Source: Flagellatimonas centrodinii (GTDB taxonomy: Bacteria; Pseudomonadota; Gammaproteobacteria; Nevskiales; Nevskiaceae). Taken from it: 64,000 nucleotides of DNA. Every line of letters starts with the position of its first letter. Position 1 is the stretch's first letter. Positions 1 through 16,037 of the stretch are shown piece after piece. The stretch covers positions 806,001 to 870,000 of the forward strand of contig NZ_CP092104.1 in NCBI RefSeq assembly GCF_016918765.2, in the 5' to 3' direction. The position numbers and the translations under genes were made by a program. The notes under the pieces are model-generated. The model was given only the letters and a program-made list of their open reading frames with translations. It was not told the DNA's origin and searched no databases.

Positions 1-1
1 G

Positions 2-2722: not shown

Positions 2723-2781
2723 CGCGGTGTCGGCCACCCCGGCGCCGCGAACCAAGCAACCCACCACGGAGTAGCACTGCA

Positions 2782-3186
2782 ATGAGCGACATCCCCAAAA
2801 CCGACTTTGCCGACCTGGTCGGCGACCTGAACGGAGGCGTGCTGGAAGAGCAGTTGAACCGCGCCCTGTCTGACGTCGCAGCCAACGTCTGCACCACCGG
2901 CCAACGCGGCGAAGTCGTCCTCACCATGAAGCTGAAGCAGATCGACGACAGCAGCCAGGTATCGCTGAGCCACAAGCTCAAGTACGTGCTGCCGAAGCCC
3001 CGCGGAAAGCTGATGGAAGAGCACGAATCCGCCACCCCGCTGCATGTCGGCCGCGGCGGCAAGCTGACCATCTATCCCAACGCCCAGACCCGCATGGACA
3101 TGGGCGCCGGCGCTGCTACCGGCCGGACGGATGGTGTCCGCGAGTCCGTCGACCGTACCACCGGCGAAATCACCTCCCACAAGTAA
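2782..3186 (+). CDS. Hypothetical phage protein (134 aa)
   Basis: A 134-residue soluble protein without signal or membrane segments, preceded by a GGAG-type ribosome site. It has an acidic N-terminal helix (DFADLVGDLNGGVLEEQLNRAL), a central basic strand region and a Gly/Thr-rich tail. I do not recognise a named domain. It sits between ssb and the DUF2303 gene, a common place for recombination or replication accessory genes in temperate phages. Confidence 0.75.
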   Translation: MSDIPKTDFADLVGDLNGGVLEEQLNRALSDVAANVCTTGQRGEVVLTMKLKQIDDSSQVSLSHKLKYVLPKPRGKLMEEHESATPLHVGRGGKLTIYPNAQTRMDMGAGAATGRTDGVRESVDRTTGEITSHK

Positions 3187-3196
3187 GGACACACCC

Positions 3197-3988
3197 ATGC
3201 ACATCGATACCCTCAACCGCATCGCCGAACTGGCCATCCAGGCCAGCAGGGAAAACGTGCTCGCCGAGCACACCCCCGCGCTCGTGCTCGACAACAGGAT
3301 CGTCACCATCGAGCACCTGATGGAAGGCCGTAGCCGCTTCCGCGGCACGTTCACCACCACCGTGCTGTCCGAGTACGTCAGCTATCTCAAGGCAAACCCG
3401 GGTGGTGTCGGCTTCATCGACCCCAAAAAGTGCGCGGCCAGCACTTTCATCAATCTCGGTGACAAGAAGACCCCCGGCCATGCCGATTGGGTTGCCAAGC
3501 TGGATCTCGAACCCACCGCCGCCTATGCCGCGCTGCGGGGCGTCGAGGGCGTTCCGCAGTCCCAGCGTGCGCTGGCCGAGTGGATCGAGGACTGGGCATC
3601 GGTCATCACCGCCGAGAAAGATGGCGAGGCAATGCCGCTGGCCCAGGCAACTGCCGCCATCCGCAATATCTCCATCGATGCCAAGAAATCGGTCACCAGC
3701 GAAGACCGCGACTTCGGTGCCACCAAGAGCGCGCTCGAAGAAATCGAGGCCCGTGCCAAGGGCGGCATGCCGAGCCGCCTGATCTTGCGGGCGTGCCCTT
3801 ACCCCGGCTTCCGGGAGCGGGAGTTTCAACTGCGGACGGCCATCATCACCGGCGATAAGCCGCACATCACGCTGCGCATCGTCGGCAAAGAAGCCCAGGC
3901 CGAAGACATCGCCACCGAGTTCAAGGCCCTGTTGCTCGAACACGTCGGCGACGCGGCAACCATGACCCTCGGCAACTTCCAGCCCTGA
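3197..3988 (+). CDS. DUF2303 family phage protein
   Basis: A 263-residue protein resembling the DUF2303 family: an N-terminal helix, a GTFTTTVLSEYVSYL block, a GFIDPKKCAASTFINLG block and a C-terminal region with FREREFQLR. Members are found in phage recombination/replication clusters; their biochemical role is not established as far as I know. The ATG at 3197 follows AAGGA closely. Upstream in-frame ATGs would overlap the previous gene and lack such a site. Confidence 0.8.
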   Translation: MHIDTLNRIAELAIQASRENVLAEHTPALVLDNRIVTIEHLMEGRSRFRGTFTTTVLSEYVSYLKANPGGVGFIDPKKCAASTFINLGDKKTPGHADWVAKLDLEPTAAYAALRGVEGVPQSQRALAEWIEDWASVITAEKDGEAMPLAQATAAIRNISIDAKKSVTSEDRDFGATKSALEEIEARAKGGMPSRLILRACPYPGFREREFQLRTAIITGDKPHITLRIVGKEAQAEDIATEFKALLLEHVGDAATMTLGNFQP

Positions 3989-4049
3989 TCAACGATCAGG
4001 CCATCCAGCGGGCCGGCGGTACGCCGTCGGCCCGCCACTGGACACCACG

Positions 4050-4253
4050 ATGGAACCACCCGACATCCCCATGACCCGCCAAGACGCCCTATCCATCGGC
4101 CTCCTGGCCATCTTCATCGGCTTCGCGTTCGGCGCCGGGTTCATCGGCGCCGACCACCTGATCCCCGATCCCGAACGCGCCCCGATCCGCCTTGAGCACG
4201 TCGAAGTGCGCAAGTGCGCCGCCGCGCCGCGCCCCCAACCCAACACCCTGTGA
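4050..4253 (+). CDS. Small phage membrane protein (67 aa)
   Basis: A 67-residue protein with one predicted membrane helix (about residues 15-33, IGLLAIFIGFAFGAGFIGA) between a polar N-terminus and a Pro/Arg-rich tail. Function unknown. It lies 7 bases before the KTSC-domain gene and is part of the same rightward run. An alternative start is the ATG eight codons in. Confidence 0.55.
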   Translation: MEPPDIPMTRQDALSIGLLAIFIGFAFGAGFIGADHLIPDPERAPIRLEHVEVRKCAAAPRPQPNTL

Positions 4254-4260
4254 GGTCGCC

Positions 4261-4479
4261 ATGAACCGCACCCCCATCAAGAGCAGCACCATCAAGTCGG
4301 TCGGCTATGACGCCGCGTCGAAGACGATGGAAGTCGAATTCGGATCCGGCCGGTACCGCTACGCCGACGTTCCTGCCGAAGTGCATTCCGGCCTGGTCGG
4401 TGCTGAGTCCGCCGGCAAGTTCTTCGCCGCAAACGTCCGTGGCCAGTTCCAGGGCCAGAAGCTGGAGCCGGAGCAGTGA
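4261..4479 (+). CDS. KTSC domain protein
   Basis: A 72-residue protein matching the KTSC fold: S-S-x-I-x-S-V-G-Y-D near the N-terminus, a hydrophobic FGSGRYRYADVP strand, and a C-terminal GKFFAANVRGQF helix. KTSC domains are small stand-alone or fused modules common in phages; their function is unclear. The start at 4261 has GAGG six bases upstream. The stop overlaps the next small frame by GTGA. Confidence 0.85.
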   Translation: MNRTPIKSSTIKSVGYDAASKTMEVEFGSGRYRYADVPAEVHSGLVGAESAGKFFAANVRGQFQGQKLEPEQ

Positions 4480-4565
4480 GCCGCCGCCGCAACATCCGCG
4501 TTCAGCGCCGGCTCAAGGAGCGCATGCGCTGGCCCCAGCCCGAGAAGAAGGGGCGGCGCCGGTGA
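4476..4565 (+). CDS. Possible 29-residue basic peptide coupled on both sides
   Basis: A GTG-started frame of 29 codons lies exactly between the KTSC gene and the methyltransferase, sharing GTGA overlaps with both stops and starts. The product is extremely basic (about half Arg/Lys) with one Trp. The double overlap matches the tiling style of this cluster, and this is the main support. It could instead be a chance frame or part of a methyltransferase leader. Confidence 0.4.
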   Translation: MSRRRNIRVQRRLKERMRWPQPEKKGRRR

Positions 4566-6346
4566 GCATCGTCGAGATCCGTCACGCCCACATGTGCGCC
4601 GGCGCCGGTGGTGGCGCACGCGGCTTCAACCGCGGTAGGGCCCGGGTCGGCAACATGACCGCCATCTATCGCTGCATCGGCGGCATCGATGTCGACCCTG
4701 CCGGCATCCGCGACTTTGAGCGCCTGTCAGGCGTGGCCGGCACCCTCATGGACCTGTTCGATCGCGAGCAGTACACCGCATTCCATGGCCGACCCCCGCC
4801 TGACGGTTGGCGCGAGGCGACGGCCGATGATGTCCGCCGAGCCTACAACTATGAGCGCCCGCACGTCGTCTTCATCAGCGCCCCATGCAAAGGGTTCTCC
4901 GGCCTGCTGTCGCAGCTAAAGTCCCTCACCGACAAGTACCAGGCACTCAACCGCCTCACGCTGCGCGCCGTCTGGCTCATGCTCGAGGCCTGGGCGGACG
5001 ACCCGCCCGAGCTGATCCTGTTCGAGAACGTCCCCCGTATCGCCACCCGGGGCCGCGCGCTGCTGGATCACATCCAGGTGCTGCTGCGCAGCTACGGCTA
5101 TGCCGTCGCCGAGACCACGCACGACTGTGGCGAGATCGGCGGCTTGGCCCAGAGCCGCAAGCGGTTCTTGCTGGTGGCCCGGCATGCCGAGAAGGTGCCG
5201 CCGTTCTTGTACGAGCCCGAACGCCGGCCGCTGCGGGCGGTGGGCGACGTCCTGTCCCGCCTGCCGTTGCCAGTTGGCGAGCCCGTCAACCCGATGCACC
5301 GGCTGCCAGCCTTGCAATGGAAGACCTGGGTGCGTCTGGCCTTCGTGGAAGCCGGCAGCGACTGGCGCAGCCTCAACCGTCTGGCGGTGGAAGACGGGAA
5401 GCTGCGCGACTACCTGATCGTGCCCGGGTACCACGCCGGCTACATGGGCGTGCAGAAGTGGGACGACAGCATGGGCACCGTTGCAGGCCGTAGCACGCCA
5501 ACCAATGGCGCGTTCTCAGTCGCCGACCCTCGTCACCCCGCCGGCGCCGACCAGTATCACCAGTACGGCGTCACACCCTGGGATGAAACGTCCGCCACCA
5601 TCACCAGCCAGAAGAGCCCCGGCCAGGGGCGGTTCTCGGTGGCTGATCCACGTCATGCCGGTCCTGCCAAGCACAACAACGAGTTCCGCATCGTCCGCTG
5701 GAATCGCGAGGCCGGCGCCGTCACCAGCGCCCACGGCACCGGCCAGTGCGTTGCCGACCCCCGGCCGCCGCGTGAAGACCTGTTCGGCAAGTACGCCATC
5801 ACGCGGTTCGACGAAGCGGCGGGCACCGTCATCGGCGGCAGCACCACCGGCCAGGGGGCTTTCGCAGTCTCCGACCCGCGCCCCGGCATGGCCCGCGGAA
5901 AAGGCAGCCACTACCTCACGGGCGGCCACTACGGTGTGGTGCCGTGGCAGGGCACCGCCTATGCCGTCACCGGCAGCGGGCAGCACGACAACGGCCACAA
6001 CAATGTCGCCGACCCCCGCATGCCCGAGCCGGCCGACAAACTGCAGTGCCGAATCATCGCCGAGGACGGCACCTGGCACCGGCCATTCACCACTCTGGAG
6101 CTGGCAGCCCTGCAATCGCTGCTGGATCTCGATGAGTACGAGGCATTCCAGCTCGACGGCAACAGCGACAGTGCCTGGCGCGAACGCATCGGCAACGCCG
6201 TCCCCAGCGCTGCCGCTGAGGCCATCGCCAACGTCATGGCCCGCACCCTGCTGCTGGCCTGGTCGGGCGAGACCTTCATCCTCAGCAGCGAACCAATCTG
6301 GGTGCGCCCAATCGTCGCCGCGGTGCAGTGCGGGAGCGTGGCATGA
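4562..6346 (+). CDS. Phage C5-cytosine DNA methyltransferase with internal VADPR repeats
   Basis: A 594-residue C5 methyltransferase that would methylate cytosine in DNA using S-adenosylmethionine. Visible motifs are a Gly-rich cofactor loop (AGAGGGARGF, about 13-22), GIDVDPAG (about 41-48), the catalytic loop APCKGFSG with Cys109, FENVPR (about 154-159), QSRKRFLLVA (about 197-206) and the C-terminal GNAVPSAAAEAI. The usual Gln or Glu after the PC is Lys here. Between motif VIII and the C-terminus, where target recognition usually lies, five copies of V(A/S)DPR recur every 37-46 residues. The GTG at 4562 overlaps the preceding frame. It could protect phage DNA from host restriction; the target site is not deducible. 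Confidence 0.85.
   Translation: MSIVEIRHAHMCAGAGGGARGFNRGRARVGNMTAIYRCIGGIDVDPAGIRDFERLSGVAGTLMDLFDREQYTAFHGRPPPDGWREATADDVRRAYNYERPHVVFISAPCKGFSGLLSQLKSLTDKYQALNRLTLRAVWLMLEAWADDPPELILFENVPRIATRGRALLDHIQVLLRSYGYAVAETTHDCGEIGGLAQSRKRFLLVARHAEKVPPFLYEPERRPLRAVGDVLSRLPLPVGEPVNPMHRLPALQWKTWVRLAFVEAGSDWRSLNRLAVEDGKLRDYLIVPGYHAGYMGVQKWDDSMGTVAGRSTPTNGAFSVADPRHPAGADQYHQYGVTPWDETSATITSQKSPGQGRFSVADPRHAGPAKHNNEFRIVRWNREAGAVTSAHGTGQCVADPRPPREDLFGKYAITRFDEAAGTVIGGSTTGQGAFAVSDPRPGMARGKGSHYLTGGHYGVVPWQGTAYAVTGSGQHDNGHNNVADPRMPEPADKLQCRIIAEDGTWHRPFTTLELAALQSLLDLDEYEAFQLDGNSDSAWRERIGNAVPSAAAEAIANVMARTLLLAWSGETFILSSEPIWVRPIVAAVQCGSVA
5462..6022 (+). repeat. Five degenerate 37-46 codon repeats inside the methyltransferase
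   Basis: The repeats end in V(A/S)DPR at bases 5519-5533, 5639-5653, 5750-5764, 5867-5881 and 6005-6019. Each unit also has an aromatic residue plus Asp/Asn, an Ala/Gly-Thr-Val/Ile stretch and a Gly-rich turn before the DPR. The nucleotide sequences have diverged, so the repeat is visible mainly at protein level. Confidence 0.75.
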
Positions 6347-6846
6347 CCGCCGAGTTCCCTTTCCCGGCCATGTCCGCCGCCAAGCTGCAGAAGTTCAAGC
6401 AGTGGCTGGAACAGCACGGCGCCGAACTGCTGAAGCCGACCAACGAGTGGGAGGTGCTGCGCTACCGAGCCGGGCCCGACACTCACGTCGTCTACCGCAA
6501 CAGCAAGGGCAGGACCTGGAAGGCCGTGAACGGCGCCGGTGCTGCCGTCAAAGCATTCATGTCCGGCGGCGCCTGGCGTGCGCCTATCGACCGCAAGCGC
6601 TCACGCCCCAGCCTGTCGACCAAGATGTTCCTCGCACTGGTGCAGCGGGACACGGCCGAGTGCTTCTACTGCGGGGAGGCTGTGTCGGAAGACGAGGCCA
6701 CCATCGAGCATCTGGTCCCCCTCAGCAAGGGCGGGCCGAACCACATTTCCAACTTCGCCCTCGCTCACGCGCGCTGCAATCAGGACGCCGGCAACTTGTC
6801 GGTCGTCGAGAAAGTGCGTCTGCGGGAAAGGATGCGTGCCGCATGA
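6343..6846 (+). CDS. HNH endonuclease
   Basis: A 167-residue protein. The C-terminal half is an HNH nuclease: CFYCG (zinc knuckle), then TIEHLVPLSKGGPNHISN and LAHARCN, giving the His-Asn-Asn core and the second Cys. The N-terminal half is unassigned and contains the GGAWRAPIDR segment repeated elsewhere in this element. HNH enzymes in phages act in packaging, homing or defence. Here it sits among early genes directly after the methyltransferase (ATGA overlap), so it could be a companion nuclease, but nothing proves pairing. Confidence 0.85.
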   Translation: MTAEFPFPAMSAAKLQKFKQWLEQHGAELLKPTNEWEVLRYRAGPDTHVVYRNSKGRTWKAVNGAGAAVKAFMSGGAWRAPIDRKRSRPSLSTKMFLALVQRDTAECFYCGEAVSEDEATIEHLVPLSKGGPNHISNFALAHARCNQDAGNLSVVEKVRLRERMRAA

Positions 6847-7040
6847 CCGACGAAACCAAACTCGGCCCCGTAATCCGCGAGAGCGATCGGGCGTACCTCG
6901 TTCGCGTCGAACGCCAGGGCCAGGCCGCCTATGAGCAATGGGTGCCTAAGGACCTGGCCAGCACCACCCGCGAGGGCATCCCGCCGCGGACGTTCGTGTG
7001 GGTGCCGCCGTGGTGGGCAAAGCAGAAGGCGATTTCATGA
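6843..7040 (+). CDS. Hypothetical phage protein (65 aa)
   Basis: A 65-residue soluble protein starting with the ATGA overlap from the HNH gene and ending in another ATGA overlap. It contains a strand-rich centre (YLVRVERQGQAAYEQWVPK) and a Trp-rich end. Family not recognised. The tight overlaps argue that it is translated. Confidence 0.65.
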   Translation: MTDETKLGPVIRESDRAYLVRVERQGQAAYEQWVPKDLASTTREGIPPRTFVWVPPWWAKQKAIS

Positions 7041-7423
7041 AGAAGATCACAGAGCGGTTCGCCACTTTCTACAGCCCGGGCCTGTTGTTTGCTGAGACGT
7101 CTACAGTCGCCGTCAACAGCTTGGACCCGCTGGCCGTCAAATGGCCGAACACTGCATACGCATTCACGTTGCACGAGCGTGAGGATGTTGTCGACGGGGA
7201 CAGTCGGTTCACCGGCACGGCGCGACAGATCGGCCCAACGTACTACCACCCGGACAGCAAGGTCGAAACCCTAGCCGAAGTTCGGGCGAGCCGACCCAAC
7301 GCTAATGTGCTGATCTCCAACATGGAGTCCAACCGCTGGGACAAGATCATCTGGTCTCGCTGGGGGAATTGGCCGCAGCCGTTTGAGGACGGAAAAGCCG
7401 TCGTCTTGGGGGCCTCAGCATGA
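7037..7423 (+). CDS. Hypothetical phage protein (128 aa)
   Basis: A 128-residue protein coupled by ATGA overlaps on both sides. It resembles small phage proteins with a strand-rich fold (FATFYSPG, TVAVNSLDP, AYAFTLHERE) and a C-terminal segment rich in Trp and Asn. No catalytic motif or membrane segment is visible. Function unknown. Confidence 0.7.
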   Translation: MKKITERFATFYSPGLLFAETSTVAVNSLDPLAVKWPNTAYAFTLHEREDVVDGDSRFTGTARQIGPTYYHPDSKVETLAEVRASRPNANVLISNMESNRWDKIIWSRWGNWPQPFEDGKAVVLGASA

Positions 7424-8031
7424 TCGAGTCCTACCCCCTCTACTGGCCCGAAGGCCGGCCCCGGACCAGCCGCATTTCCCGCGAGCGCTCCCGGTTCGAC
7501 ACCAGTTTTGCCCGCGCCCGGGATGAAGTCGTGCGCCAGGTCGAACTGATGACCGGCCGCTACGAGTGGATGCGCCATAAGGCCGAGCTGATCCTGTCGA
7601 CCAACGTGCCCCTGCGGCGCGACGGCCTGCCGATGGCAAGCGCACGGCCGCCGGACGATCCGGGCGTCGCCGTGTACTTCAACTACAAGGGCAACCCGGT
7701 CTGTTTCGCATGCGACCGCTGGCTGACCGTGGTCGACAACATGCAGGCCATCGCCAAGACCATCGACGCCCTGCGCGGGATCTCGCGCTGGGGCACCGGC
7801 GACATGATGGAGGCCGCGTTCAAGGGGTTCACTGCCCTGCCAGCACCGACTGAGCGCGGCTGGCGGGATGTCCTGGGCCTGCAGCCGGGCACGGCGCCAA
7901 CGCGCGCCGACATCGAATCCGCATTCCGCCGGCGCCGATCCGAATGTCACCCGGACCGAGGCGGCAGCGCCGATGAGTTCCATGCGGTGCAGGCGGCGTA
8001 TCAGCAGGCGATCAAGGAGGTGACCCTGTGA
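7420..8031 (+). CDS. J-domain protein of phage type (C-terminal HPD)
   Basis: A 203-residue protein whose last 65 residues form a J domain: GWRDVLGLQPGTAPTRADIE, then RRRRSECHPDRGGS with the HPD at about 177-179, then a final helix. J domains stimulate Hsp70 ATPases and recruit them to substrates, so this would let the phage direct host DnaK. The N-terminal 130 residues show no known domain, but they include a strand with FNYKGNPVCFACDRW. It starts with an ATGA overlap and ends 9 bases from the tail-to-tail neighbour, where the rightward tiling breaks. Confidence 0.8.
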   Translation: MIESYPLYWPEGRPRTSRISRERSRFDTSFARARDEVVRQVELMTGRYEWMRHKAELILSTNVPLRRDGLPMASARPPDDPGVAVYFNYKGNPVCFACDRWLTVVDNMQAIAKTIDALRGISRWGTGDMMEAAFKGFTALPAPTERGWRDVLGLQPGTAPTRADIESAFRRRRSECHPDRGGSADEFHAVQAAYQQAIKEVTL

Positions 8032-8039
8032 TGAACGCC

Positions 8040-8771
8040 CTACACCGCCTCACCCGAGTGCGACAGAGCAATATCATCGTCAGGGTCCAGCCCGAAGGAC
8101 CTGAGAATGGAGCGCCCCGCTTCCATGCAGTCAAGGATGGCTGCCTCAGCCGTAGGCGCCTCAGGTCCCACCTGAGCCTCGTTGTATGCCAGATTGGTTT
8201 TGGCCGCGAGCAAAAACAAGTCAATAACGGAGAGGTAAACACTCGCTCGCCCGGTCATGCGACCAAAGGATGCAGCCTCGCTTTCAGTAAGGCCCCCGAT
8301 ATCAACACGGAGGTCGGCGATCAATCGCACGGTAGTCACTCGGCTAAGGATCTGAGTGCGAAGCGCTCCTTGACGGATCGACTGCCGAATCAGCGCGCCA
8401 GATACCTTATTGCAATCAACAAGCAGTCTGGCGATCGGTCCAACAATTTGAGCTTTGGCGAGTTCACGAAGCCGCGTTCGATCCGCCTGCCTCAAATCGA
8501 CCTGCTCCTGCCGCTGACGCTCCCGCTCGATGCTTTCGTTCCAAGCGATGGCCACGACGATGAACAGAGCAAATACGGTGCCGAATGCTGTCAGGTAGCT
8601 GGCGGTTTGTTCGGGGGTGAGCGAAAGCCACCACTGCCCTGGCGAAACGAGGTTCCCCGCGGTGTCCGAGGTGTAGAACGTCCAGGCCAGATGCCCGACC
8701 CAGATCGCACAGGCAGCAGCGATCAGACCCGTAACCCATTTGAACCACTGACGCTGCTTGGCGTACTCCAC
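8040..8771 (-). CDS. Two-helix membrane protein with cytoplasmic tail (cargo gene A)
   Basis: A 243-residue protein on the opposite strand to the surrounding cluster. Predicted membrane helices lie at about 13-32 and 59-77, followed by a very charged helix (ESIERERQRQEQ) and a long helical cytoplasmic region. The second helix contains FGTVFAL, a G-[ST]-hydrophobic pattern shared with the proteins at 9490-10122 and 12863-13489. Start is GTG with GAGGA at good spacing. The gene interrupts an otherwise overlapping run of rightward genes, as phage cargo (moron) genes do. Superinfection exclusion or defence is possible but not shown. Confidence 0.75.
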   Translation of the reverse strand: MEYAKQRQWFKWVTGLIAAACAIWVGHLAWTFYTSDTAGNLVSPGQWWLSLTPEQTASYLTAFGTVFALFIVVAIAWNESIERERQRQEQVDLRQADRTRLRELAKAQIVGPIARLLVDCNKVSGALIRQSIRQGALRTQILSRVTTVRLIADLRVDIGGLTESEAASFGRMTGRASVYLSVIDLFLLAAKTNLAYNEAQVGPEAPTAEAAILDCMEAGRSILRSFGLDPDDDIALSHSGEAV

Positions 8772-8827
8772 GGGAATTCCTCGCAGGAATTGAATCTCTG
8801 TCGAAGTGTACTTGCGGAGCGGACCTC

Positions 8828-9016
8828 ATGACCGCCCCCCGCTGCCCCGTAGGCGTCATCGAGCATCAGGGCCGACGGATCACGTATGCGCCCCACATGC
8901 ACACCTACCGAATCGTCGTCGTCGGCACCGGCGAGGTGCTGGGCTGTAGCGACGAGCTGCGCGCGGCCATTGAGGCCGACATCGAGCACATCAAAGCCAA
9001 GGAGGAAGGCCGGTGA
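8828..9016 (+). CDS. Hypothetical phage protein (62 aa)
   Basis: A 62-residue soluble protein with a strand-strand-helix look (HMHTYRIVVVGTGEVLGC, then DELRAAIEADIEHIKAKEEG). It resumes the rightward cluster after cargo gene A and ends in a GTGA overlap with the DUF4326 gene. Function unknown. Confidence 0.6.
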   Translation: MTAPRCPVGVIEHQGRRITYAPHMHTYRIVVVGTGEVLGCSDELRAAIEADIEHIKAKEEGR

Positions 9017-9321
9017 AACCACAACGCATCCAACTCCGCCGAACCAAGGGCTGGCGCATGCCGCCGAATACGGTGAAAGTCGCGCGGCCCGGTGTTTTCG
9101 GCAACCCCTTCCGGGTTACAGAAGACCGCAGCCACGCGGAAGCCGTCTCTGCATTCAGGACGTGGCTGACGGTCGATGGATGCGAGGCCGGCATGCCTGA
9201 GCAAAAGGCGGCTCTGTTGACAGCACTGCCGGCGCTACGCGGCGCGAACCTCGCCTGCTGGTGCCCGCTGGACCAGCCCTGCCATGCCGATGTGTTGCTG
9301 GAGCTCAGCAATGCCGCATAA
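9013..9321 (+). CDS. DUF4326 protein
   Basis: A 102-residue protein with the DUF4326 signature: GWRMPPNTVKVARPGVFGNPF near the N-terminus and LRGANLACWCPLDQPCHADVLLEL at the end, with conserved Cys and His. The family is common in phages; its activity is unknown to me. GTG start by overlap with the preceding stop. It overlaps the next gene by 11 bases. Confidence 0.85.
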   Translation: MKPQRIQLRRTKGWRMPPNTVKVARPGVFGNPFRVTEDRSHAEAVSAFRTWLTVDGCEAGMPEQKAALLTALPALRGANLACWCPLDQPCHADVLLELSNAA

Positions 9322-9508
9322 CCCGGCCATCCCCGCCGACACCAACGCCCTGCTGAATCAGATCGAGGATGCCCGGAGCGCCCTGTTCAACACGATTCTG
9401 GGCGCCCGGCCATCACTGGCAGTACAGGCCCTGGCCATGCGTGCCGATGCCGACGTGCAGGCGGTGATGGACCGGATCATCGACGAGAGTCAGGAAGCGT
9501 CGCGGTGA
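9311..9508 (+). CDS. Hypothetical phage protein (65 aa)
   Basis: A 65-residue, mostly helical, acidic protein that starts inside the DUF4326 gene and runs 19 bases into the end of the leftward gene at 9490. No domain recognised. Its overlap with the opposite-strand gene marks a second break in the tiled rightward cluster. Confidence 0.55.
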   Translation: MPHNPAIPADTNALLNQIEDARSALFNTILGARPSLAVQALAMRADADVQAVMDRIIDESQEASR

Positions 9509-10122
9509 TCGGCCTCGCAGAAAATTTCATCCAGATGCGAATTGATTTCTTTAAGGAGATCTCGCGCCCCTCTTTGTGCCTCCTTTCTTGCGAGGCTCGC
9601 AGCAGCATCATTACGGTCCAGAGTTGGATCTTTCAGTCCAAACGATGTTTTAGAGGAATCAACAAGTACCACCAGTCGAGAAAGTGTGGAGACGAGTTCG
9701 AAGTCCATGGAGGCGGCTTCAGTAGCCGCTCTCAATCGCAAAGACCGCTTTTTCATCTCAGCAAAAGCCTGACTGGCGACTTCGCAGGTGACCGGACCAG
9801 TCTCAACTGCTCTGAGCATCGTTACGGCGGGAGCGAGAATCGCTTCAACAGCATGCCTTCTATTCTTCCGAATGCCTGCGGCCTCCTGTCGCCGCTTCTG
9901 GTGTTCCTTTTCCATATTTTCCAGCGATTGCTTTCCTTGCCTGGCCGCGATCCATACGGCAGCCAATATGGCCCCAATCGATCCGACCGCCTGAACCCAC
10001 TCCGGCTCGAGATCGAGATACTGCACCGTCGTGATAACTGGGATTCCAAGAACGAACCCTGTCATTACGCCAAGGAGTGCGCAGGTGCCGCAGTTCAACC
10101 AGTTCAGGATCTTCTCGCACAT
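9490..10122 (-). CDS. Two-helix membrane protein with cytoplasmic tail (cargo gene B)
   Basis: A 210-residue protein with membrane helices at about 12-33 and 43-60, then a strongly charged helix (ENMEKEHQKRRQEA) and a helical C-terminal region of about 130 residues. The second helix has VGSIGAIL with Gly47, the same residue number as in the protein at 12863-13489. The gene is on the minus strand, AT-richer than its neighbours by eye, and lies 12 bases after the zinc-ribbon gene on the same strand, so the two may form an operon. Function unknown. Confidence 0.75.
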   Translation of the reverse strand: MCEKILNWLNCGTCALLGVMTGFVLGIPVITTVQYLDLEPEWVQAVGSIGAILAAVWIAARQGKQSLENMEKEHQKRRQEAAGIRKNRRHAVEAILAPAVTMLRAVETGPVTCEVASQAFAEMKKRSLRLRAATEAASMDFELVSTLSRLVVLVDSSKTSFGLKDPTLDRNDAAASLARKEAQRGARDLLKEINSHLDEIFCEADHRDAS

Positions 10123-10134
10123 ACAGTGGGCTCC

Positions 10135-10374
10135 TCAGGCCGACTTGTCCCGGGGATTGTCGCACTCTCGCTGAAACGCCCGCTGCCACGGAATCCGATC
10201 TGGCGGCCGCTCATCGATCGAGCACTGACCCCGGACCCCGCACCTGGTGCAGCGCCCCCGGGCGGCCACTTGCGACAACGGCCGCTCACTGGCGCCCATC
10301 TTCTGGTAGCGCACAACCCGCCGGGACACATGCCCGCAGGCCCCACACGTCCACGTTTGAGTCCACCTCGCCAT
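10135..10374 (-). CDS. Possible zinc-ribbon protein upstream of cargo gene B
   Basis: A 79-residue frame with two CxxC knuckles (TCGACGH at residues 10-13, RCTRCG at 42-45) separated by 28 residues, plus further His and Cys, as in small zinc ribbons. It runs leftward and ends 12 bases before cargo gene B. Against it, the region is GC-rich, where minus-strand frames arise by chance. The ordered Cys pairs make it more likely real than not. It could be a DNA- or RNA-binding regulator. Confidence 0.55.
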   Translation of the reverse strand: MARWTQTWTCGACGHVSRRVVRYQKMGASERPLSQVAARGRCTRCGVRGQCSIDERPPDRIPWQRAFQRECDNPRDKSA

Positions 10375-10439
10375 GGCCGGAGCGTACCCCGCCCGCGTCT
10401 CACCCGGCGAGACATTTCACCCACGACCAGGAGGTCGAC

Positions 10440-10625
10440 ATGCTGATCCTCACCAGACGCGTCAACGAAACCATCGTCATCGCCGGCGGCATCACCATCA
10501 CCGTTCTTGAGATCAAGGGCGGCCAGGTCCGTATCGGGATCGATGCGCCGGAGACAGTGCCCATCCACCGGGGCGAGCTGATCGAGAAAGCCAGAAAGGA
10601 GGCCAAGAATGAAGACCAAAGCTGA
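10440..10625 (+). CDS. csrA: CsrA/RsmA-family RNA-binding regulator, phage-encoded
   Basis: A 61-residue CsrA homologue: MLILTRRVNETIVI, then ITITVLEIKGGQVRIGI and APETVPIHRGEL, keeping Leu4 and the His-Arg pair that contacts GGA motifs in RNA leaders. A strong AGGAGG precedes the ATG at 10440. CsrA dimers repress or activate translation by binding mRNA. A copy inside a prophage could tune phage mRNAs or interfere with the host regulator. It overlaps the next gene by 17 bases. Confidence 0.95.
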   Translation: MLILTRRVNETIVIAGGITITVLEIKGGQVRIGIDAPETVPIHRGELIEKARKEAKNEDQS

Positions 10626-11058
10626 GTTTTGGCGAGCATGGGCCATCGACGGCATGCCAGCGGACAAGCAGCGGCTCGCCGAGGCGGCCTGGCAAGCCGG
10701 CCGCGCGGATCGCGATAAGGAGCTCCGGGAGCAGGAGCCAGCGGCGTGGAACTTTCAGCACCGAGAAACAGGCCGGTGCATGGAATTGACGAACGACGGC
10801 ATCAACAACCCTGAAAACTTCATCGCCAACAACCCGCGTTTTCAGTTGATCGGCCCGCTCTACACCGCCCCCGTCCCGCCGCCTGACGTGCTGCGGCTGT
10901 CGAAGGAATTGCTCGCCGCTATGGACGAGGTAGACGCCGAGGCGCAGCGAGCCGATCAACCGAATGCGAATGCTTGGTCCAGCGCCCCAACGGTCAGAAT
11001 GCTTCACGCCCGCAAGGCCCTTGCCGCCGCGCTCGCCAAGCACCGGGGGCAGTCATGA
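10609..11058 (+). CDS. Hypothetical phage protein (149 aa)
   Basis: A 149-residue protein. The N-terminal part (FWRAWAIDGMPADKQRLAEAA) is helical. The centre contains a PLYTAPVPPP segment often seen in phage DUF551-type or related small proteins. The start lies within the csrA end, with GGAGG in front. Function unknown. Confidence 0.65.
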   Translation: MKTKAEFWRAWAIDGMPADKQRLAEAAWQAGRADRDKELREQEPAAWNFQHRETGRCMELTNDGINNPENFIANNPRFQLIGPLYTAPVPPPDVLRLSKELLAAMDEVDAEAQRADQPNANAWSSAPTVRMLHARKALAAALAKHRGQS

Positions 11059-11534
11059 GCAAGAATCCAACGCCAGCGCCTTGGAGCGCCGATACGCACG
11101 AACCAGTGATGGTGCGCGGAGCCGTTCGACACCGCGTCAGCGGCGAACACAGCGGCGACAAGATCATCGGCATGACTGAAACCGACTACCTGCACGCCGC
11201 TGAATGCGTCAACCGTTGCGCCGAACTGGCGAAGCCCGAGTTTTGCTCAGGCCCGCTGCTGGCAGACGACGAACAAACTGTTGACCGCGTTGCCGAGCTG
11301 CTTTTGGACAACGGCTGGCACGACCGTGGCGATGCTCAGTGGGGGAGGCTGCGCGATCTGTTGCCTGAACTTCGCGCCATGCTCGCCGCCCCTACGCCGC
11401 CAGTGGCAGACGACAATTCAGAACGAGAAGGGGAACTCAGTGAAATCGCGGACGGGGCGTGGGGCGATGGCCCTGCTGTTCGTGGGGCAGCCCGAGACAA
11501 ACTAGCTGCCGAGCGTAGACGGAGGAACCCATGA
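11055..11534 (+). CDS. Hypothetical phage protein (159 aa)
   Basis: A 159-residue protein coupled by ATGA on both sides. It begins with PTPAPWSADTHEP, a motif common at the start of phage Ead/Ea22-like proteins, followed by YLHAAECVNRCAEL. I take it as a small phage early protein of that general kind; function unknown. Confidence 0.65.
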   Translation: MSKNPTPAPWSADTHEPVMVRGAVRHRVSGEHSGDKIIGMTETDYLHAAECVNRCAELAKPEFCSGPLLADDEQTVDRVAELLLDNGWHDRGDAQWGRLRDLLPELRAMLAAPTPPVADDNSEREGELSEIADGAWGDGPAVRGAARDKLAAERRRRNP

Positions 11535-11902
11535 GCGACGAACTCAAGCGGGAAAGCGAGCGGATTGCGAGGCTGGCGGAGATGGCCGCATCTGGACGGT
11601 TCGCTGACGAGATGGCCTTGAGGTCACAGTGCGGTGCCATGACCGCCCACATCGCCAAGCTGCAAGCCGCGCTGGACGAGGCGCAGAAGGTCCGAACACT
11701 GGGCGATTATCACGAGGACTACGGCCCGGTTGTCTGGTGGACGAAGCCATGCAATGAGCCCGCATGGATTGGCACCCCGCTTGACGACACATGGCCCGGC
11801 TATCACACGCACTGGACGAAGCATCCCGCCGTGCCCGATGAGCTGCAGATCGACAACGTAGTGGAAGACGAACTCGCCGCCATGCGCGGGGAGGTGAAGT
11901 GA
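11531..11902 (+). CDS. Hypothetical phage protein (123 aa)
   Basis: A 123-residue protein with an N-terminal coiled-coil-like helix (LKRESERIARLAEMA) and a second module with VVWWTKPCNEPAW and GYHTHWTKHP, rich in Trp and His and reminiscent of DUF551-like phage domains. Coupled by ATGA to the previous gene and TGATG to the next. Confidence 0.65.
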   Translation: MSDELKRESERIARLAEMAASGRFADEMALRSQCGAMTAHIAKLQAALDEAQKVRTLGDYHEDYGPVVWWTKPCNEPAWIGTPLDDTWPGYHTHWTKHPAVPDELQIDNVVEDELAAMRGEVK

Positions 11903-12081
11903 TGTTCGGCAAGCTGCTATCAACCCCTATCCGATTGCTGAACGCCCCGCTACGCGCAGTCGAGAATCTGACCGGCGCCGAGACTGAGGACGACCGGCTT
12001 CTCAGCCGACCGGCCGAAGAACTTGCGAAAGAGGTCGAGCAGGCGGTGGACGGAAAGAAGCGCGGGGAGGTCCAACTGTGA
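11902..12081 (+). CDS. Hypothetical phage protein (59 aa)
   Basis: A short protein starting LLSTPIRLLNAPLRAVENLTG with an amphipathic N-terminal helix and an acidic tail. The pattern resembles small phage proteins of unknown role found near Ea22-like genes. GAGG precedes the start. A GTG three bases upstream would also serve. It overlaps the next start by GTGA. Confidence 0.6.
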   Translation: MFGKLLSTPIRLLNAPLRAVENLTGAETEDDRLLSRPAEELAKEVEQAVDGKKRGEVQL

Positions 12082-12581
12082 GCAAACGATTCGGGAGAAA
12101 CCAGAAGCGTCGACTCACTGCCGCACTCCGCCTGGCGCAACATCAGACGCGGGAATCGCAGGTTGCCGAGCGACGGGCCATCCGCAAAGCCATGGCTTGC
12201 GAGTACACGATGCGCCAGATCGAGGAGCTGGTGCCGGATCACAGCGCGCTGCTGGAGCCCCGGGAGCTGGGAACGGACCACGTGTCGGATTTCTTCCGGA
12301 TGCACCACGGTCTTCCTAGCTTGACCAAAGGATTGGCAAACCACGCTACCCACGAGAACGCTGTTGTCGAGTTGCTGCGGCTCGCCGTGTACCGATTGAA
12401 GATGCACAGAGAGGCTGTAGATCGCATGGTCCACGTAGAGCTCCGCGGCCCCGACGGGTCACTAGGCTACGCGGTATCGGAGGATCTACTGATCCAGGCG
12501 CCCGCAGCCCATGTGGCCCGCATGATCACGCGCCAGTTCGAGCCCGAGTTGGCCCGGCAGATCGGTCGGAGGCGCGCATGA
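12078..12581 (+). CDS. Hypothetical phage protein (167 aa)
   Basis: A 167-residue basic protein started at GTG by overlap. The first 35 residues are strongly basic (KRFGRNQKRRLTAAL), so nucleic-acid binding is possible; the rest is helical, with a conserved-looking YTMRQIEELVPDHSALLEP segment. Not assignable to a family by eye. Confidence 0.65.
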   Translation: MSKRFGRNQKRRLTAALRLAQHQTRESQVAERRAIRKAMACEYTMRQIEELVPDHSALLEPRELGTDHVSDFFRMHHGLPSLTKGLANHATHENAVVELLRLAVYRLKMHREAVDRMVHVELRGPDGSLGYAVSEDLLIQAPAAHVARMITRQFEPELARQIGRRRA

Positions 12582-12766
12582 ATGACAAACGCGACGTGAA
12601 AGCAGTGATCGCAGTCACTAGCCGCATCACGGATGTCGGTGACATCGAGATAGAAACGAACGTGCTGGGTGCTGTTCAGCGCGGCGTTCTCCGCATGGAG
12701 GACCAGGCCGTCCGGTCGGCGCTGATCAAACTGGGGTGGACACCGCCCGGGGAGCGCCAGCAGTGA
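12578..12766 (+). CDS. Hypothetical phage protein (62 aa)
   Basis: A 62-residue protein with strand-rich character and a final LIKLGWTPP segment, a typical ending of small phage proteins. It is coupled by ATGA to the upstream gene and by GTGA to the next short frame. Confidence 0.6.
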   Translation: MNDKRDVKAVIAVTSRITDVGDIEIETNVLGAVQRGVLRMEDQAVRSALIKLGWTPPGERQQ

Positions 12767-12933
12767 CCGACCTCCTCCCCTTCGCCATCATCGGCGGCGC
12801 CTGGCGTGCGCCTATCGACCGGCTGGCCGCCCCCATGAGTAGGGGAATCCAACTATCCGCCTCTACCGGACAAATGATGGTTGTTCGGGAAACATCTCCT
12901 TACAGTGGTCTCGAAATTCTGTCGCGCATTTAA
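12763..12933 (+). CDS. Short frame carrying the GGAWRAPIDR repeat, possibly a broken gene
   Basis: A GTG-started frame of 56 residues coupled to the preceding stop. Its first half contains GGAWRAPIDR, encoded by 30 bases identical to part of the HNH gene. The second half runs into the opposite-strand cargo gene C and looks non-genic. The most likely reading is that the original gene lost its 3' part when cargo gene C was inserted. Confidence 0.4.
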   Translation: MTDLLPFAIIGGAWRAPIDRLAAPMSRGIQLSASTGQMMVVRETSPYSGLEILSRI

Positions 12934-13489
12934 TGAATCTCTCAAAATCATCTTTTATAGAAGTTTGGACATTCTTGAACGTTGCTGTCCCGAGGATTTC
13001 CATCATGTCTATCTCATTGCGAATATTTGACAGGCAACCCAGCATTTGATCGAGGAGGCCGGCGTGAACCCACCCACTGTCAAGTGCAGCATCACCAGCT
13101 TGCTCGAGTGCGGCTGCGTGATCATGATTAACCTTGAGAATCGACATCAAGTAATCTGGAATTTCGCGCAAGTCATTTCCGACATTAAAAACGCGCACCC
13201 GAACCTGAGCAATGAATACGTTGTTATGAGACTTAAGCTTCATGAATGGCCGTCGCAGTCGATTTGCAGCCTCTATCTTTCTTTGGTGACGCATATCGAT
13301 ATTGGAAGCTACATATGTAAATGTAGAGACGAACAGGGCTAATAGCGTTCCAAGGTTCGCAAAGAATTCAAGGTCAGCATCAATGAAATCAAGCCATGCC
13401 ATAAGCAACAGCAGAACGAGTACACCGGAAAGCAGACCGAACAAAAAGGCCTCTTTTCTGCTGATCAGATTTCTGATTTTTCGACTCAT
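12863..13489 (-). CDS. Two-helix membrane protein with cytoplasmic tail (cargo gene C)
   Basis: A 208-residue protein with membrane helices at about 13-33 and 43-61, an acidic turn between them (DADLEF) and a basic helix after them (MRHQRKIEAANRLRR). The second helix has LGTLLAL with Gly47, matching the layout of the protein at 9490-10122. The remaining 130 residues are soluble and helical. The ATG at 13489 has a purine-rich site (AAGAGA) and places the first helix normally; an upstream ATG at 13540 is less likely. The gene is clearly AT-richer than its surroundings, consistent with recent acquisition. Confidence 0.78.
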   Translation of the reverse strand: MSRKIRNLISRKEAFLFGLLSGVLVLLLLMAWLDFIDADLEFFANLGTLLALFVSTFTYVASNIDMRHQRKIEAANRLRRPFMKLKSHNNVFIAQVRVRVFNVGNDLREIPDYLMSILKVNHDHAAALEQAGDAALDSGWVHAGLLDQMLGCLSNIRNEIDMMEILGTATFKNVQTSIKDDFERFIKCATEFRDHCKEMFPEQPSFVR

Positions 13490-13547
13490 AGATTCTCTTT
13501 TCCTGTAGCTATGGAACTGGTGCCCCAGCATCAATAACACTTCTTAA

Positions 13548-13748
13548 ATGGAACAGCACCCCACCTTGCTACGGCTCACCGACGTCAAGTCTCGTACAGG
13601 TCTCGGCAAAACCAAGATCTACGAACTGATGGGCGAAGGCGACTTCCCCAAGCCGGTAAAGATCGGCCCGCTATCGCTGTGGGTCGAGTCCGAGGTTGAG
13701 GCATGGATCACGGCAATCATTGAGTCTCGGGATTCGGCCGAGGCCTGA
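13548..13748 (+). CDS. AlpA-family regulator / excisionase
   Basis: A 66-residue winged helix protein of the AlpA type: LLRLTDVKSRTGLGKTKIYELM, then GDFPKPVKIGP and LWVESEVEAWI. Such proteins bind DNA next to integrase genes and act as excisionases or activators of integrase. It overlaps the end of the convergent integrase gene by 32 bases. No clear Shine-Dalgarno is visible. Confidence 0.9.
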   Translation: MEQHPTLLRLTDVKSRTGLGKTKIYELMGEGDFPKPVKIGPLSLWVESEVEAWITAIIESRDSAEA

Positions 13749-14907
13749 GCGTATCCAGGTAGTCCGCCCAAGCCTGCATCATCTCCCTGCGTTGCTGCAG
13801 GTACTTCGCATGGTCATAGGCCGCCTGCGTGCGCGACCGCGGCGCATGGGCAAGCTGCACCTCTACCCAGGCGCCATCCCATCCCATTTCCCGAAGTATC
13901 GTCGCCGCCGTAGCCCGGAAGTCGTGGCCACTCATCGGAAGGCCCATGTACTCGAGCGCCCGGTTCACCGTAGTGGCGCTTATCGGCGTTCGCGGCCGGC
14001 GCATGCTGGGGAACAGGTGCTCACCAGCGCCGGTGATGCCATGCAGCTCCCGCAGCAGCCCCACCATTTGCCGCGGCAGAGGTACCAGGTGCCGCCGGCG
14101 CTTTTTCATTGTCCCAACCGGCGGCCGCCAGAGCGCGGCATCGAGATCGATGTCCGGCCACCGCGCCTTTCGCATCTCGGCCGTGCGCGGCCACAGCATC
14201 ACCATCATCTCGATAGCGATGCACGTCGTCCGATTGCCGCCATAGCTGTCCAGGGCCGCCAGGAACTGCCGCAACCCGTCCTCGCCAATGTTCTCGGCGT
14301 GCTCGATCTCGTCCCGCTTCACGGTGCGCCGCAGCAGGGCCGCCGGATCAGCATCAGCCTTCAGCCGAGCAGCAGCGTAGCCGTAGACCGCCGAGATCCA
14401 CTGGCGGATGTTGATGGCAACCGTCTTCGCACCCCGGCCGGCCACCGCGTCCAGGATCACCAGCACCTCGGCGGAGGTCACCGACCTGATCGGCCGGCGG
14501 CCGATCCGCGGGTAAACGTCCTTCACCATGGCCGTCCGAACCTGGTTTGCGTAATAAGGGCTCCAGGTCCCTTGGTGCGCCTGCTGCCACAGTTCGGCCA
14601 GCGCCTGAAACGTGTCCGCGTTCTCCCCCACCTGCTGGGCCACTTGCCGGGCCCGCTCATGGGCCGGGTGGATGCCCTGGCGCACCAGTGCCCGGGCCTC
14701 GCCATGCTTGGCGCGCGCATCGGCCAGGGACAGCTCAGGGTAGGCACCGACTGCGAACGTGTTGCGCTTGCCGGCGATGCTGTACCCGTACCGCCACAAC
14801 TTCACGCCACTGGGACGCACCTCAAGGTACAGGCTCTGCTGGTCAGCCAGCTTGTAGGGCTTGTCCGCTGGCTTCGCCTTGCGGATCTGCACGTCGGTCA
14901 GCGGCAT
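13717..14907 (-). CDS. Tyrosine integrase (P4-like)
   Basis: A 396-residue site-specific recombinase. The N-terminal arm-binding DUF4102-like domain begins PLTDVQIRKAKPADKPYKL and includes GVKLWRYGY. The SAM-like core-binding domain follows. The catalytic domain shows PRTAEMRKARW (first Arg), HDFRATAAT (His-x-x-Arg), QLAHAPRS (His) and AAYDHAKYL (the Tyr nucleophile), then the typical RRREMMQAWADYLD end. All catalytic residues are present, so it should be active. It lies at the element edge, reading inward, beside the arm-like repeats and the trpG stub. Confidence 0.95.
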   Translation of the reverse strand: MPLTDVQIRKAKPADKPYKLADQQSLYLEVRPSGVKLWRYGYSIAGKRNTFAVGAYPELSLADARAKHGEARALVRQGIHPAHERARQVAQQVGENADTFQALAELWQQAHQGTWSPYYANQVRTAMVKDVYPRIGRRPIRSVTSAEVLVILDAVAGRGAKTVAINIRQWISAVYGYAAARLKADADPAALLRRTVKRDEIEHAENIGEDGLRQFLAALDSYGGNRTTCIAIEMMVMLWPRTAEMRKARWPDIDLDAALWRPPVGTMKKRRRHLVPLPRQMVGLLRELHGITGAGEHLFPSMRRPRTPISATTVNRALEYMGLPMSGHDFRATAATILREMGWDGAWVEVQLAHAPRSRTQAAYDHAKYLQQRREMMQAWADYLDTLRPRPNPETQ

Positions 14908-14908
14908 A

Positions 14909-14951
14909 CGGTATCGGGCTGCGGTTGGGGTCGATACCGCAGACGATACCG
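14909..14951. repeat. cggtatcg/cgataccg repeats before the integrase
   Basis: One copy of CGGTATCG (14909-14916) faces two direct copies of CGATACCG (14932-14939 and 14944-14951, 12 bases apart), making inverted and direct repeats just upstream of the integrase start. Likely an operator or recombination-accessory binding site. Confidence 0.5.
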
Positions 14952-14970
14952 CAAATCATCCCGGATAGAG

Positions 14971-15059
14971 GCGAACCTATGCGAACCGCTGCGAACACCA
15001 AAGGCCCAGAATGACCAGGTTTCGACGGGCCTTGCGAACCGCTACGAACGAGGGCGAAC
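14971..15059. repeat. Two phased GCGAAC arrays, probable integrase arm sites
   Basis: GCGAAC occurs at 14971, 14981 and 14991. A second trio at 15034, 15044 (ACGAAC) and 15054 has the same 10-base spacing. One helical turn per step puts all copies of an array on one DNA face. Position between the integrase and the element end fits arm-type binding sites. Confidence 0.6.
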
Positions 15060-15066
15060 GCGAATG

Positions 15067-15090
15067 TCAGTTATCGATCATCAACAGCAT
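15067..15090 (-). pseudogene. trpG: 5' stub of trpG at the element junction (att region)
   Basis: On the minus strand an ATG at 15090 opens a frame reading MLLMIDN and then a stop. These seven residues equal the conserved N-terminus of TrpG (anthranilate synthase glutaminase subunit), which normally continues YDSFTYN. The match ends exactly where the phage-like repeats begin. The simplest reading is that the element integrated just inside trpG; the rest of trpG should lie beyond the other end of the element, with a start supplied by the element. Confidence 0.6.
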
Positions 15091-15094
15091 GGGG

Positions 15095-15125
15095 GCGCCC
15101 GGCGAACTTTTCGGGCGCGATTCTA
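15095..15125 (-). promoter_or_regulatory. Possible trpG promoter -10 and leader hairpin
   Basis: On the minus strand TAGAAT (15125-15120) is followed by a 7-base perfect hairpin (15118-15112 with 15101-15095) and then the trpG-like ATG. No T-run follows, so it is not a convincing terminator. No Shine-Dalgarno is visible. Confidence 0.35.
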
Positions 15126-15140
15126 CCCCGCCGTGCCGCT

Positions 15141-16037
15141 TCAACCGGACTGCCGCCGCACCTCGGCAAGAAAGTCCCGCAGGTAAGGCCGCGCCGCCAG
15201 GCTCTCGGGCATGGCGGCATGCAGCTCGCAGCGCAGGCCCTTGGGCCCCAGCGGCTTGCCGATCACATAGCCGCGCGCCAGATACGGCGCCACGCTCCAC
15301 GCCGGCAGGGCGGCAATGCCGCGGCCGCTGGCCACCAGCTGCAGGATGGCCACCGTGAGTTCGGCATTGCGTCGCTTCGGTCGCAGCCCGGCCGGCGCCA
15401 GAAAGTGGCGCACCACGTCGAGCATGTCGTCCTCCACCGGATAGCTGATCAAGGTCTCCGCCGCCACGTCCTCCGGCCGCAGCCAGCGCTTGCCGGCCAG
15501 CGCATGGCCCGGCGCCAGAATCGCCAGCGTCTCGTAGTCGAACAGCGGCGCGGTGACGATGCCGGGGCGATGCGGTGGCAGATCGTGCAACACCGCAAAG
15601 TCGGCCTTGCCCTGCTCGATCAGGGTCACCGGCTCGGTATGGAAGCCACTCACCAGATCCAGCTCCACCTCCGGCCAGTGCTCTCGGAAGGCATCCATCG
15701 CCGGCATCAGCCAGTCGAAGCAGGTGTGGCACTCCACCGCCACCCGCAGTTCACCGCTGCGGCCGGACACCCATTGCGCGACATCCCGCTCGGCGGCGGC
15801 GGTCAGCGCCGTCACCTCGCGGGCCGCGCGCAGCAGTCGCTGCCCCGCCTGGGTAAAACGCAACGGCCGGGTGTTGCGCTCGAACAGGGGCACGCCGAAA
15901 TGGTCTTCCAGCACCCGGATCTGGTGGGACAGCGCCGACTGGGTGACAAACACCCGCGCCGCCGCCTTGGCCAGGGTGCCGGCCTCGTTGAGCGCGATCA
16001 GGGTGTGCAGATGGCGGAGCTCGAGCGGCGATGACAT
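15141..16037 (-). CDS. metR: LysR-type activator MetR
   Basis: A 298-residue LysR regulator. The N-terminal helix-turn-helix is LRHLHTLIALNEAGTLAKAA then VFVTQSALSHQIRVLE. The effector domain begins near residue 95 with GELRVAVECHTCFDWLMPAM, typical of MetR, which uses homocysteine as co-inducer and activates met genes. Divergent orientation to metE with a shared palindromic intergenic region supports the assignment. The 3' end lies about 50 bases before the trpG stub. Confidence 0.92.
   Translation of the reverse strand: MSSPLELRHLHTLIALNEAGTLAKAAARVFVTQSALSHQIRVLEDHFGVPLFERNTRPLRFTQAGQRLLRAAREVTALTAAAERDVAQWVSGRSGELRVAVECHTCFDWLMPAMDAFREHWPEVELDLVSGFHTEPVTLIEQGKADFAVLHDLPPHRPGIVTAPLFDYETLAILAPGHALAGKRWLRPEDVAAETLISYPVEDDMLDVVRHFLAPAGLRPKRRNAELTVAILQLVASGRGIAALPAWSVAPYLARGYVIGKPLGPKGLRCELHAAMPESLAARPYLRDFLAEVRRQSG

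What the first reader, a model, noticed from the sequence alone, without database searches (positions are those of the whole stretch)
8040..13489. Three leftward two-helix membrane proteins inserted in a tiled phage cluster
Seen: the genes at 8040-8771, 9490-10122 and 12863-13489 all oppose the surrounding cluster. Each encodes two N-terminal membrane helices, then a basic charged helix and a soluble helical tail. In the second and third proteins, helix 2 begins at residue 43 and carries Gly47-Ser/Thr in the same place; the first has the same G-[ST] motif at Gly64. Inference: a recurrent cargo family occupying variable sites of one prophage type, possibly for superinfection exclusion or anti-phage defence. 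This layout is not one I can name, so it is my best candidate for an undescribed system.
Basis: partly seen in the sequence, partly recalled or inferred. Interest (0 to 1): 0.75.

Follow-up and report, generated by a model that had tools for sequence, protein, structure and literature searches.

The report
Prophage membrane anchors with varying tails
Viruses dormant in this bacterium carry extra backward-facing genes whose proteins share one membrane anchor but have different inner parts, probably to keep rival viruses out, though no experiment has tested that.

Summary
Three leftward genes (proteins P0001, P0002, P0003) interrupt the rightward early cluster of a prophage, and the stated residues are correct. 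A fourth leftward gene, a small zinc-ribbon protein upstream of P0002, was missed. BLASTP among the three finds nothing, but two homologues in other prophages of the same genome link them: P0004 has P0002's membrane module and P0001's tail; P0007 resembles P0003 and lies beside its own integrase. Profile comparison joins both groups over the membrane hairpin and stalk only (HHalign E 2.7e-6; 0 of 150 shuffles), while tails fall into separate types. The whole-genome search finds five members, all in predicted proviruses. In a fourth provirus, P0001 is replaced between conserved flanks by a DNA methyltransferase, and P0002 is missing. So this is a recurrent cargo family: one membrane anchor with different cytosolic helical tails, without a named match in Pfam, PHROGs, NCBIfam or PADLOC. 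Superinfection exclusion or defence is the likeliest role by position and architecture only; nothing here tests it. Relatives found elsewhere are few and share mainly the anchor.

The parts
8040..8771 (-). P0001, 243 aa: membrane hairpin, stalk, type-1 tail (shared with P0004 of prophage B)
9490..10122 (-). P0002, 210 aa: membrane hairpin 58% identical to P0004 over residues 1-59, then a tail with no detected relative
12863..13489 (-). P0003, 208 aa: membrane hairpin, stalk, tail weakly like that of P0007 of prophage C
10135..10374 (-). Small zinc-ribbon-like protein (79 aa, two CxxC), 12 bp upstream of P0002; copies in prophages B and D
   Evidence: no Pfam or PHROGs family at 0.01; no clear Shine-Dalgarno
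8023..8823 (.). Cargo slot 1: P0001 here, N6/N4 DNA methyltransferase in prophage D
8872..10165 (.). Cargo slot 2: most of a small frame, two further small frames, P0002 and the 3' end of the zinc-ribbon gene; no blastn match in the D stretch
12802..13489 (.). Cargo slot 3: P0003; similarity to prophage B stops at 12801
7420..8031 (+). DnaJ-like protein, left flank of slot 1 (93.5% aa identity in D)
   Evidence: PF00226, E 3e-5, below the curated cut-off
13548..13748 (+). AlpA-type regulator between P0003 and the integrase
   Evidence: PF05930, E 3.3e-15
13717..14907 (-). Integrase; the IMG/VR provirus ends at 14907
   Evidence: PF00589, E 4.5e-17; end position computed

Best explanation
These are independently oriented prophage cargo genes (morons). 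SHOWN by sequence: a shared N-terminal hairpin of two membrane helices plus a basic stalk, joined to different soluble tails, with members recurring at variable sites of several prophages of one genome. INFERRED: by charge (mainly the loop between the helices) both ends lie inside the cell, and the models make the tail a helical bundle on a long helix that rises from membrane helix 2. INFERRED and untested: the genes are expressed from the resident prophage, against the lytic early direction; the anchor holds the tail at the inner membrane, where it interferes with entry or early development of competing phages; the variable tail sets the target, so that co-resident prophages protect the lysogen against different phages. 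The zinc-ribbon gene before P0002 and P0004 may be a regulator or partner.
For: Bridge P0004: full-length homologue of P0001 (E 2e-38), 58% identical to P0002 in residues 1-59. HHalign of the {P0001,P0002,P0004} and {P0003,P0007} profiles: E 2.7e-6, residues 3-76 / 5-77 only; 0 of 150 shuffled profiles reach the score. Leave-one-out recovery of all five among 1550 ORFs; rank in the whole genome; reciprocal hit. Five members in the genome, all in predicted proviruses. Slot replacement in prophage D. GC3 0.46-0.67 against 0.64-0.86, median 0.79, for 21 other genes of the region. Position and architecture parallel known prophage membrane exclusion proteins (P22 SieA, PMC10883804, passages).
Against: No functional, expression or localisation data. 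No defence-library match. P0001's module taken pairwise against P0002, P0003 and P0007 is near chance (z 0.8, 1.9, 1.2). P0003 reaches only E 0.12 with the P0001/P0002/P0004 profile. P0001 and P0007 overlap the low end of the GC3 range. No promoter recognised. Structure models are of moderate confidence and match only generic helical bundles. DNA identity P0002/P0004 falls in steps, not at one sharp break, so tail divergence without exchange is possible.
Confidence: 0.5

Rival explanations
1. They are phage life-cycle proteins (lysis timing, spanin- or antiholin-like, or membrane attachment of replication) that happen to be transcribed leftwards.
For: A weak P0002 match to an Rz-like spanin family (E 0.021); membrane helix plus helical stalk.
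Against: Provirus D has no member, and copy number is 3, 1, 1, 0 in A, B, C, D; positions differ; topology by charge puts the tail inside.
Confidence: 0.15
2. P0002 and P0004 work with the zinc-ribbon protein as a two-gene abortive-infection or toxin-antitoxin pair, in which the membrane protein kills or depolarises the cell. Two-gene prophage defence with a membrane partner is known (Rex-like Sbash and CarolAnn pairs, Butters gp30/gp31; PMC7542560, passages).
For: The zinc-ribbon gene lies directly upstream in both A (12 bp) and B.
Against: Provirus D keeps the zinc-ribbon gene without a membrane partner, and no zinc-ribbon copy adjoins P0001, P0003 or P0007 (one search finds three copies only).
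Confidence: 0.2
3. The likeness is convergent: P0003/P0007 are unrelated to P0001/P0002/P0004, and any two-helix hairpin would look alike.
For: BLASTP between the three is insignificant; P0001/P0002 module z 0.8 and P0001/P0003 1.9; tails of the two groups unrelated.
Against: Profile results with hydropathy-preserving controls, whole-genome rank, reciprocal hit; P0002/P0003 module z 7.5, P0004/P0007 6.3.
Confidence: 0.1

Closest known systems
P22 SieA (superinfection exclusion, inner membrane; PMC10883804, passages)
   Same: Small prophage-expressed inner-membrane protein; very divergent types under 30% identical
   Different: Three predicted membrane helices, no long soluble tail; no sequence relation was found or specifically tested here
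SNIPE (PMC13190303, abstract and passages)
   Same: Membrane anchor that places a soluble part at the inner membrane
   Different: Carries DUF4041 and a nuclease domain; no such match here
HP1 orf1 (U24159 1698-2315; P51700 by name and length)
   Same: Two hydrophobic helices then a soluble tail; leftward between int and cI; structure-search hit of the P0003 model, E 0.021
   Different: Profile match to the anchor not significant (E 3.6); unknown function
Redi protein G3M5C6 (by length REDI_32, JN624851)
   Same: Helical tail behind an N-terminal hydrophobic helix; leftward, downstream of repressor and integrase
   Different: One hydrophobic helix by eye; match E 0.020 only; unknown function
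G010 and G037 proteins (203 and 205 aa) and phrog_33632
   Same: Share the anchor helix W-[VI]-Q-A-[IV]-G-S (phrog_33632 E 5.7e-5 and 1.5e-5; P0002 E 4.5e-4)
   Different: One membrane helix by eye; other tails; phrog_33632 has no known function

Membership tests
Shared-anchor family (P0001, P0002, P0003, P0004, P0007) | Homologous membrane hairpin and stalk | tested here: met
   weakest for P0001 taken pairwise
Shared-anchor family (P0001, P0002, P0003, P0004, P0007) | One common tail | tested here: not met
   Tail z 20.0 for P0001/P0004, 2.1 for P0001/P0002, 2.0 for P0003/P0007, 1.0 or less for the other seven pairs
Superinfection exclusion proteins | Blocks a superinfecting phage | not testable with these tools
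   needs phage plating
Superinfection exclusion proteins | Expressed from the prophage in the lysogen | not testable with these tools
   orientation fits; no promoter recognised
Superinfection exclusion proteins | Inner-membrane protein | tested here: inconclusive
   prediction only
Prophage cargo (moron) | Variable presence between related prophages, independent orientation, deviating composition | tested here: met
SNIPE | DUF4041 and nuclease domain | tested here: not met
   no such Pfam match at E 1 for P0001, P0002, P0003 or P0004, P0007
Known defence families (PADLOC-DB 2.0.0) | Profile match | tested here: not met
   best E 0.07, LeoBC for P0002; none for P0004, P0007
Rz-like spanin | Profile match | tested here: inconclusive
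   P0002 only, E 0.021; none listed for P0001 and P0003

The most novel reading that the evidence does not exclude
A modular exclusion family in which one membrane anchor is recombined with interchangeable cytosolic recognition tails, so that several prophages living in one cell each guard it against a different set of phages.
Probability: 0.25. Interest if true: 0.65.

Novelty: new variant of a known kind. Interest (0 to 1): 0.42.

Why it matters
Prophages are a source of anti-phage systems, and small membrane proteins of this sort are easily missed by sequence search. Here the family becomes visible only by comparing prophages of the same cell, and it comes with natural experiments: one slot with two alternative contents, and one anchor with different tails. 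If the proteins exclude phages, anchor and tail swaps would show directly which part sets the target.

Tried and rejected
Family libraries gave nothing significant for the three window proteins except phrog_33632 (E 4.5e-4, anchor helix only, unknown function) for P0002; the homologues and the zinc-ribbon protein gave no named family. No match in phages, plasmids (P0004 only), PDB sequences (profile of P0001/P0004) or Rfam (window 1-16000).

Viral contigs: eight scans returned only proviruses of this genome. Genome contigs: two scans, no relative.

Genome searches for the family, own genome included in each count: 2 of 146 (the second, G098, has five stops inside and was not pursued), 1 of 85, 1 of 369, 1 of 274, 8 of 283, 1 of 58, 4 of 289. 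Of the seven other genomes I read the frames of G010 and G037 only. Of the three, G646 looks real (222 aa, two hydrophobic stretches by eye, WVQAIGS, long tail), while G677 (interior of a many-helix protein) and G222 (471 aa) look like chance. Rows from L027-L033 were pre-selected by the family model and are not independent.

Structure: no Foldseek match at E 0.001 or better in PDB (P0001 model) or BFVD (both models); VIA-align Z up to 12.4 and 13.6 fits generic helical bundles. P0002's tail was not modelled. A link to HP1 orf1 by profile was rejected (E 3.6). The idea that the zinc-ribbon gene always accompanies the family was rejected. Of six relatives with the DnaJ-like gene none shows a family member near it in the stretches fetched (the best profile row has E 0.12); in five of them the frames behind it differ, by eye (the sixth contig is short). 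One search compared GC3 with 15 genes, two of them in a wrong frame; one search replaces it with 21 checked frames, and this did not change the conclusion. Paper searches surfaced no description of this family in the rows listed; absence from print was not shown.
Full report
WHERE IT IS. The window is C1:806001-870000 of a 3.6-Mb genome. The finding lies at the right end of a 60.5-kb predicted provirus (IMG/VR 2935521123_000002, here 'A') whose end, computed, is the integrase end, 14907. Its early cluster runs rightwards; P0001, P0002 and P0003 run leftwards. A fourth leftward frame, 10135-10374, lies 12 bp upstream of P0002; its 79-aa product with two CxxC motifs is 71% and 76% identical to copies in two other proviruses of the same genome.

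THE LINK. Pairwise BLASTP of the three proteins is insignificant, and family libraries are silent apart from an anchor-helix hit of unknown function. A search with P0002 found a second prophage (B, C1 near 303 kb; IMG/VR 000001) with a 237-aa frame opposed to its early genes, P0004. P0004 matches P0001 over full length (34%, E 2e-38) but P0002 only over residues 1-59 (58%). A search with P0003 found P0007 in a third prophage (C, near 2.618 Mb; IMG/VR 000004), beside the integrase and opposed to the neighbouring early frames.

STATISTICS. Shuffles within 10-residue blocks roughly keep the hydropathy profile (400 each). Module z-scores: P0002/P0004 14.8, P0002/P0003 7.5, P0004/P0007 6.3, P0003/P0007 5.2, P0003/P0004 4.1, P0001/P0004 4.0, P0002/P0007 3.8, P0001/P0003 1.9, P0001/P0007 1.2, P0001/P0002 0.8. 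Tail z-scores: P0001/P0004 20.0; P0001/P0002 2.1; P0003/P0007 2.0; the other seven 1.0 or less. Leave-one-out profiles recover each omitted member among 1550 ORFs, E 4.8e-23 to 4.4e-7. A profile of the P0001, P0002 and P0004 modules run over the whole genome ranks P0007 (1.4e-4) and P0003 (0.12) next; the first unrelated protein is at 0.67. The P0003/P0007 profile, run over 58 genomes of the family, finds at E 0.01 besides these two only the P0004 module (0.0076). HHalign of the two groups gives Prob 88.6, E 2.7e-6 over residues 3-76 / 5-77, that is, hairpin and stalk and not tails; 0 of 150 shuffled profiles reach the score, and the reversed profile gives Prob 0.4. The kinship is real, shown only for the anchor between the groups, and weakest for P0001 taken pairwise.

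EXCHANGE. P0004 is nearest to P0002 in the module but nearest to P0001 in the tail. This incongruence is what recombination between modules predicts; faster divergence of tails is not excluded, because DNA identity between P0002 and P0004 drops in steps.

SLOTS. Provirus D (C1 near 2.55 Mb; IMG/VR 000003) shares with A the DnaJ-like gene (93.5% aa) and the zinc-ribbon gene. Between flanks of 89% (A 7410-8022) and 96% DNA identity (A 8824-8871), A has P0001 while D has an N6/N4 DNA methyltransferase (PF01555, E 3.3e-23). A 8872-10165, which holds P0002, has no blastn match in the D stretch. At P0003's site, A and B are alike up to 12801 and then part. The whole-genome search finds five members (the sixth row, E 3.06, is unrelated): three in A, one each in B and C, none in D. 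Their GC3 is 0.66, 0.55, 0.46, 0.57 and 0.67, against 0.64-0.86 (median 0.79) for 21 other frames of the region in A.

ARCHITECTURE. The loop between the helices has no Lys/Arg in four of five members (one in P0007), and 6-11 Lys/Arg fall in the 30 residues after helix 2, which suggests both ends inside, although acidic residues there are nearly as many in P0001, P0004 and P0007. AlphaFold2 with three and two sequences gives P0001 (pLDDT 70.5, pTM 0.49) and P0003 (69.3, 0.54) the same plan: helix 1; one long helix that holds membrane helix 2 and the stalk; then a helical bundle. Foldseek finds nothing at E 0.001 or better. The best viral matches of the P0003 model, E 0.020 and 0.021, are a Redi protein and HP1 orf1. 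HP1 orf1 has two hydrophobic helices and lies leftward between int and cI. The Redi gene of matching length lies leftward downstream of repressor and integrase. These are likenesses of plan and place, not shown homology (HP1 orf1: profile E 3.6; Redi not tested).

FUNCTION. Nothing here tests function. Orientation, replaceability, composition and architecture are those of lysogenic cargo. Membrane proteins of that kind with known roles include P22 SieA (PMC10883804, passages) and the membrane partners of prophage defence pairs (PMC7542560, passages); the membrane-anchored nuclease SNIPE shows that an anchor can place an effector at the site of DNA entry (PMC13190303, abstract and passages). 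I commit to membrane-anchored exclusion or defence at about 0.5, with tail-set specificity as the bolder version.

NOVELTY. The family has no named match in the libraries searched. Outside this genome the searches showed one protein with the two-helix anchor and a long tail (G646, 222 aa) and two that share one anchor helix (G010, G037). Prophage-borne membrane exclusion proteins are a known kind; a shared anchor with changing tails in co-resident prophages is a variant that I did not see in the listings of the searches made.

Noticed in passing
window 4476-4565 (+); L004 about 6975-7078; L037 about 9524-9622: A 29-aa very basic frame (VSRRRNIRVQRRLKERMRWPQPEKKGRRR) whose DNA is conserved in prophages A, B and D (B and D 99% over 98 bp) in otherwise different surroundings.
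   Followed up: partly
window 6565-6593 and 12793-12821: A perfect 29-bp direct repeat, none expected by chance; the second copy spans the point where A and B part beside P0003, so it may mark a recombination joint.
   Followed up: partly
genome C1 near 303 kb, 760-821 kb, 2.55 Mb and 2.62 Mb: Four predicted proviruses in one genome share short patches of early-region DNA in mosaic order.
   Followed up: partly
window 4478-6346 (+): An early C-5 cytosine DNA methylase-like frame (PF00145, E 1.5e-12) with repeated 'VADPR'-like segments in its middle.
   Followed up: no
window 10440-10625 (+): A CsrA-family regulator gene (PF02599, E 4.1e-23) divergent from the zinc-ribbon gene.
   Followed up: no
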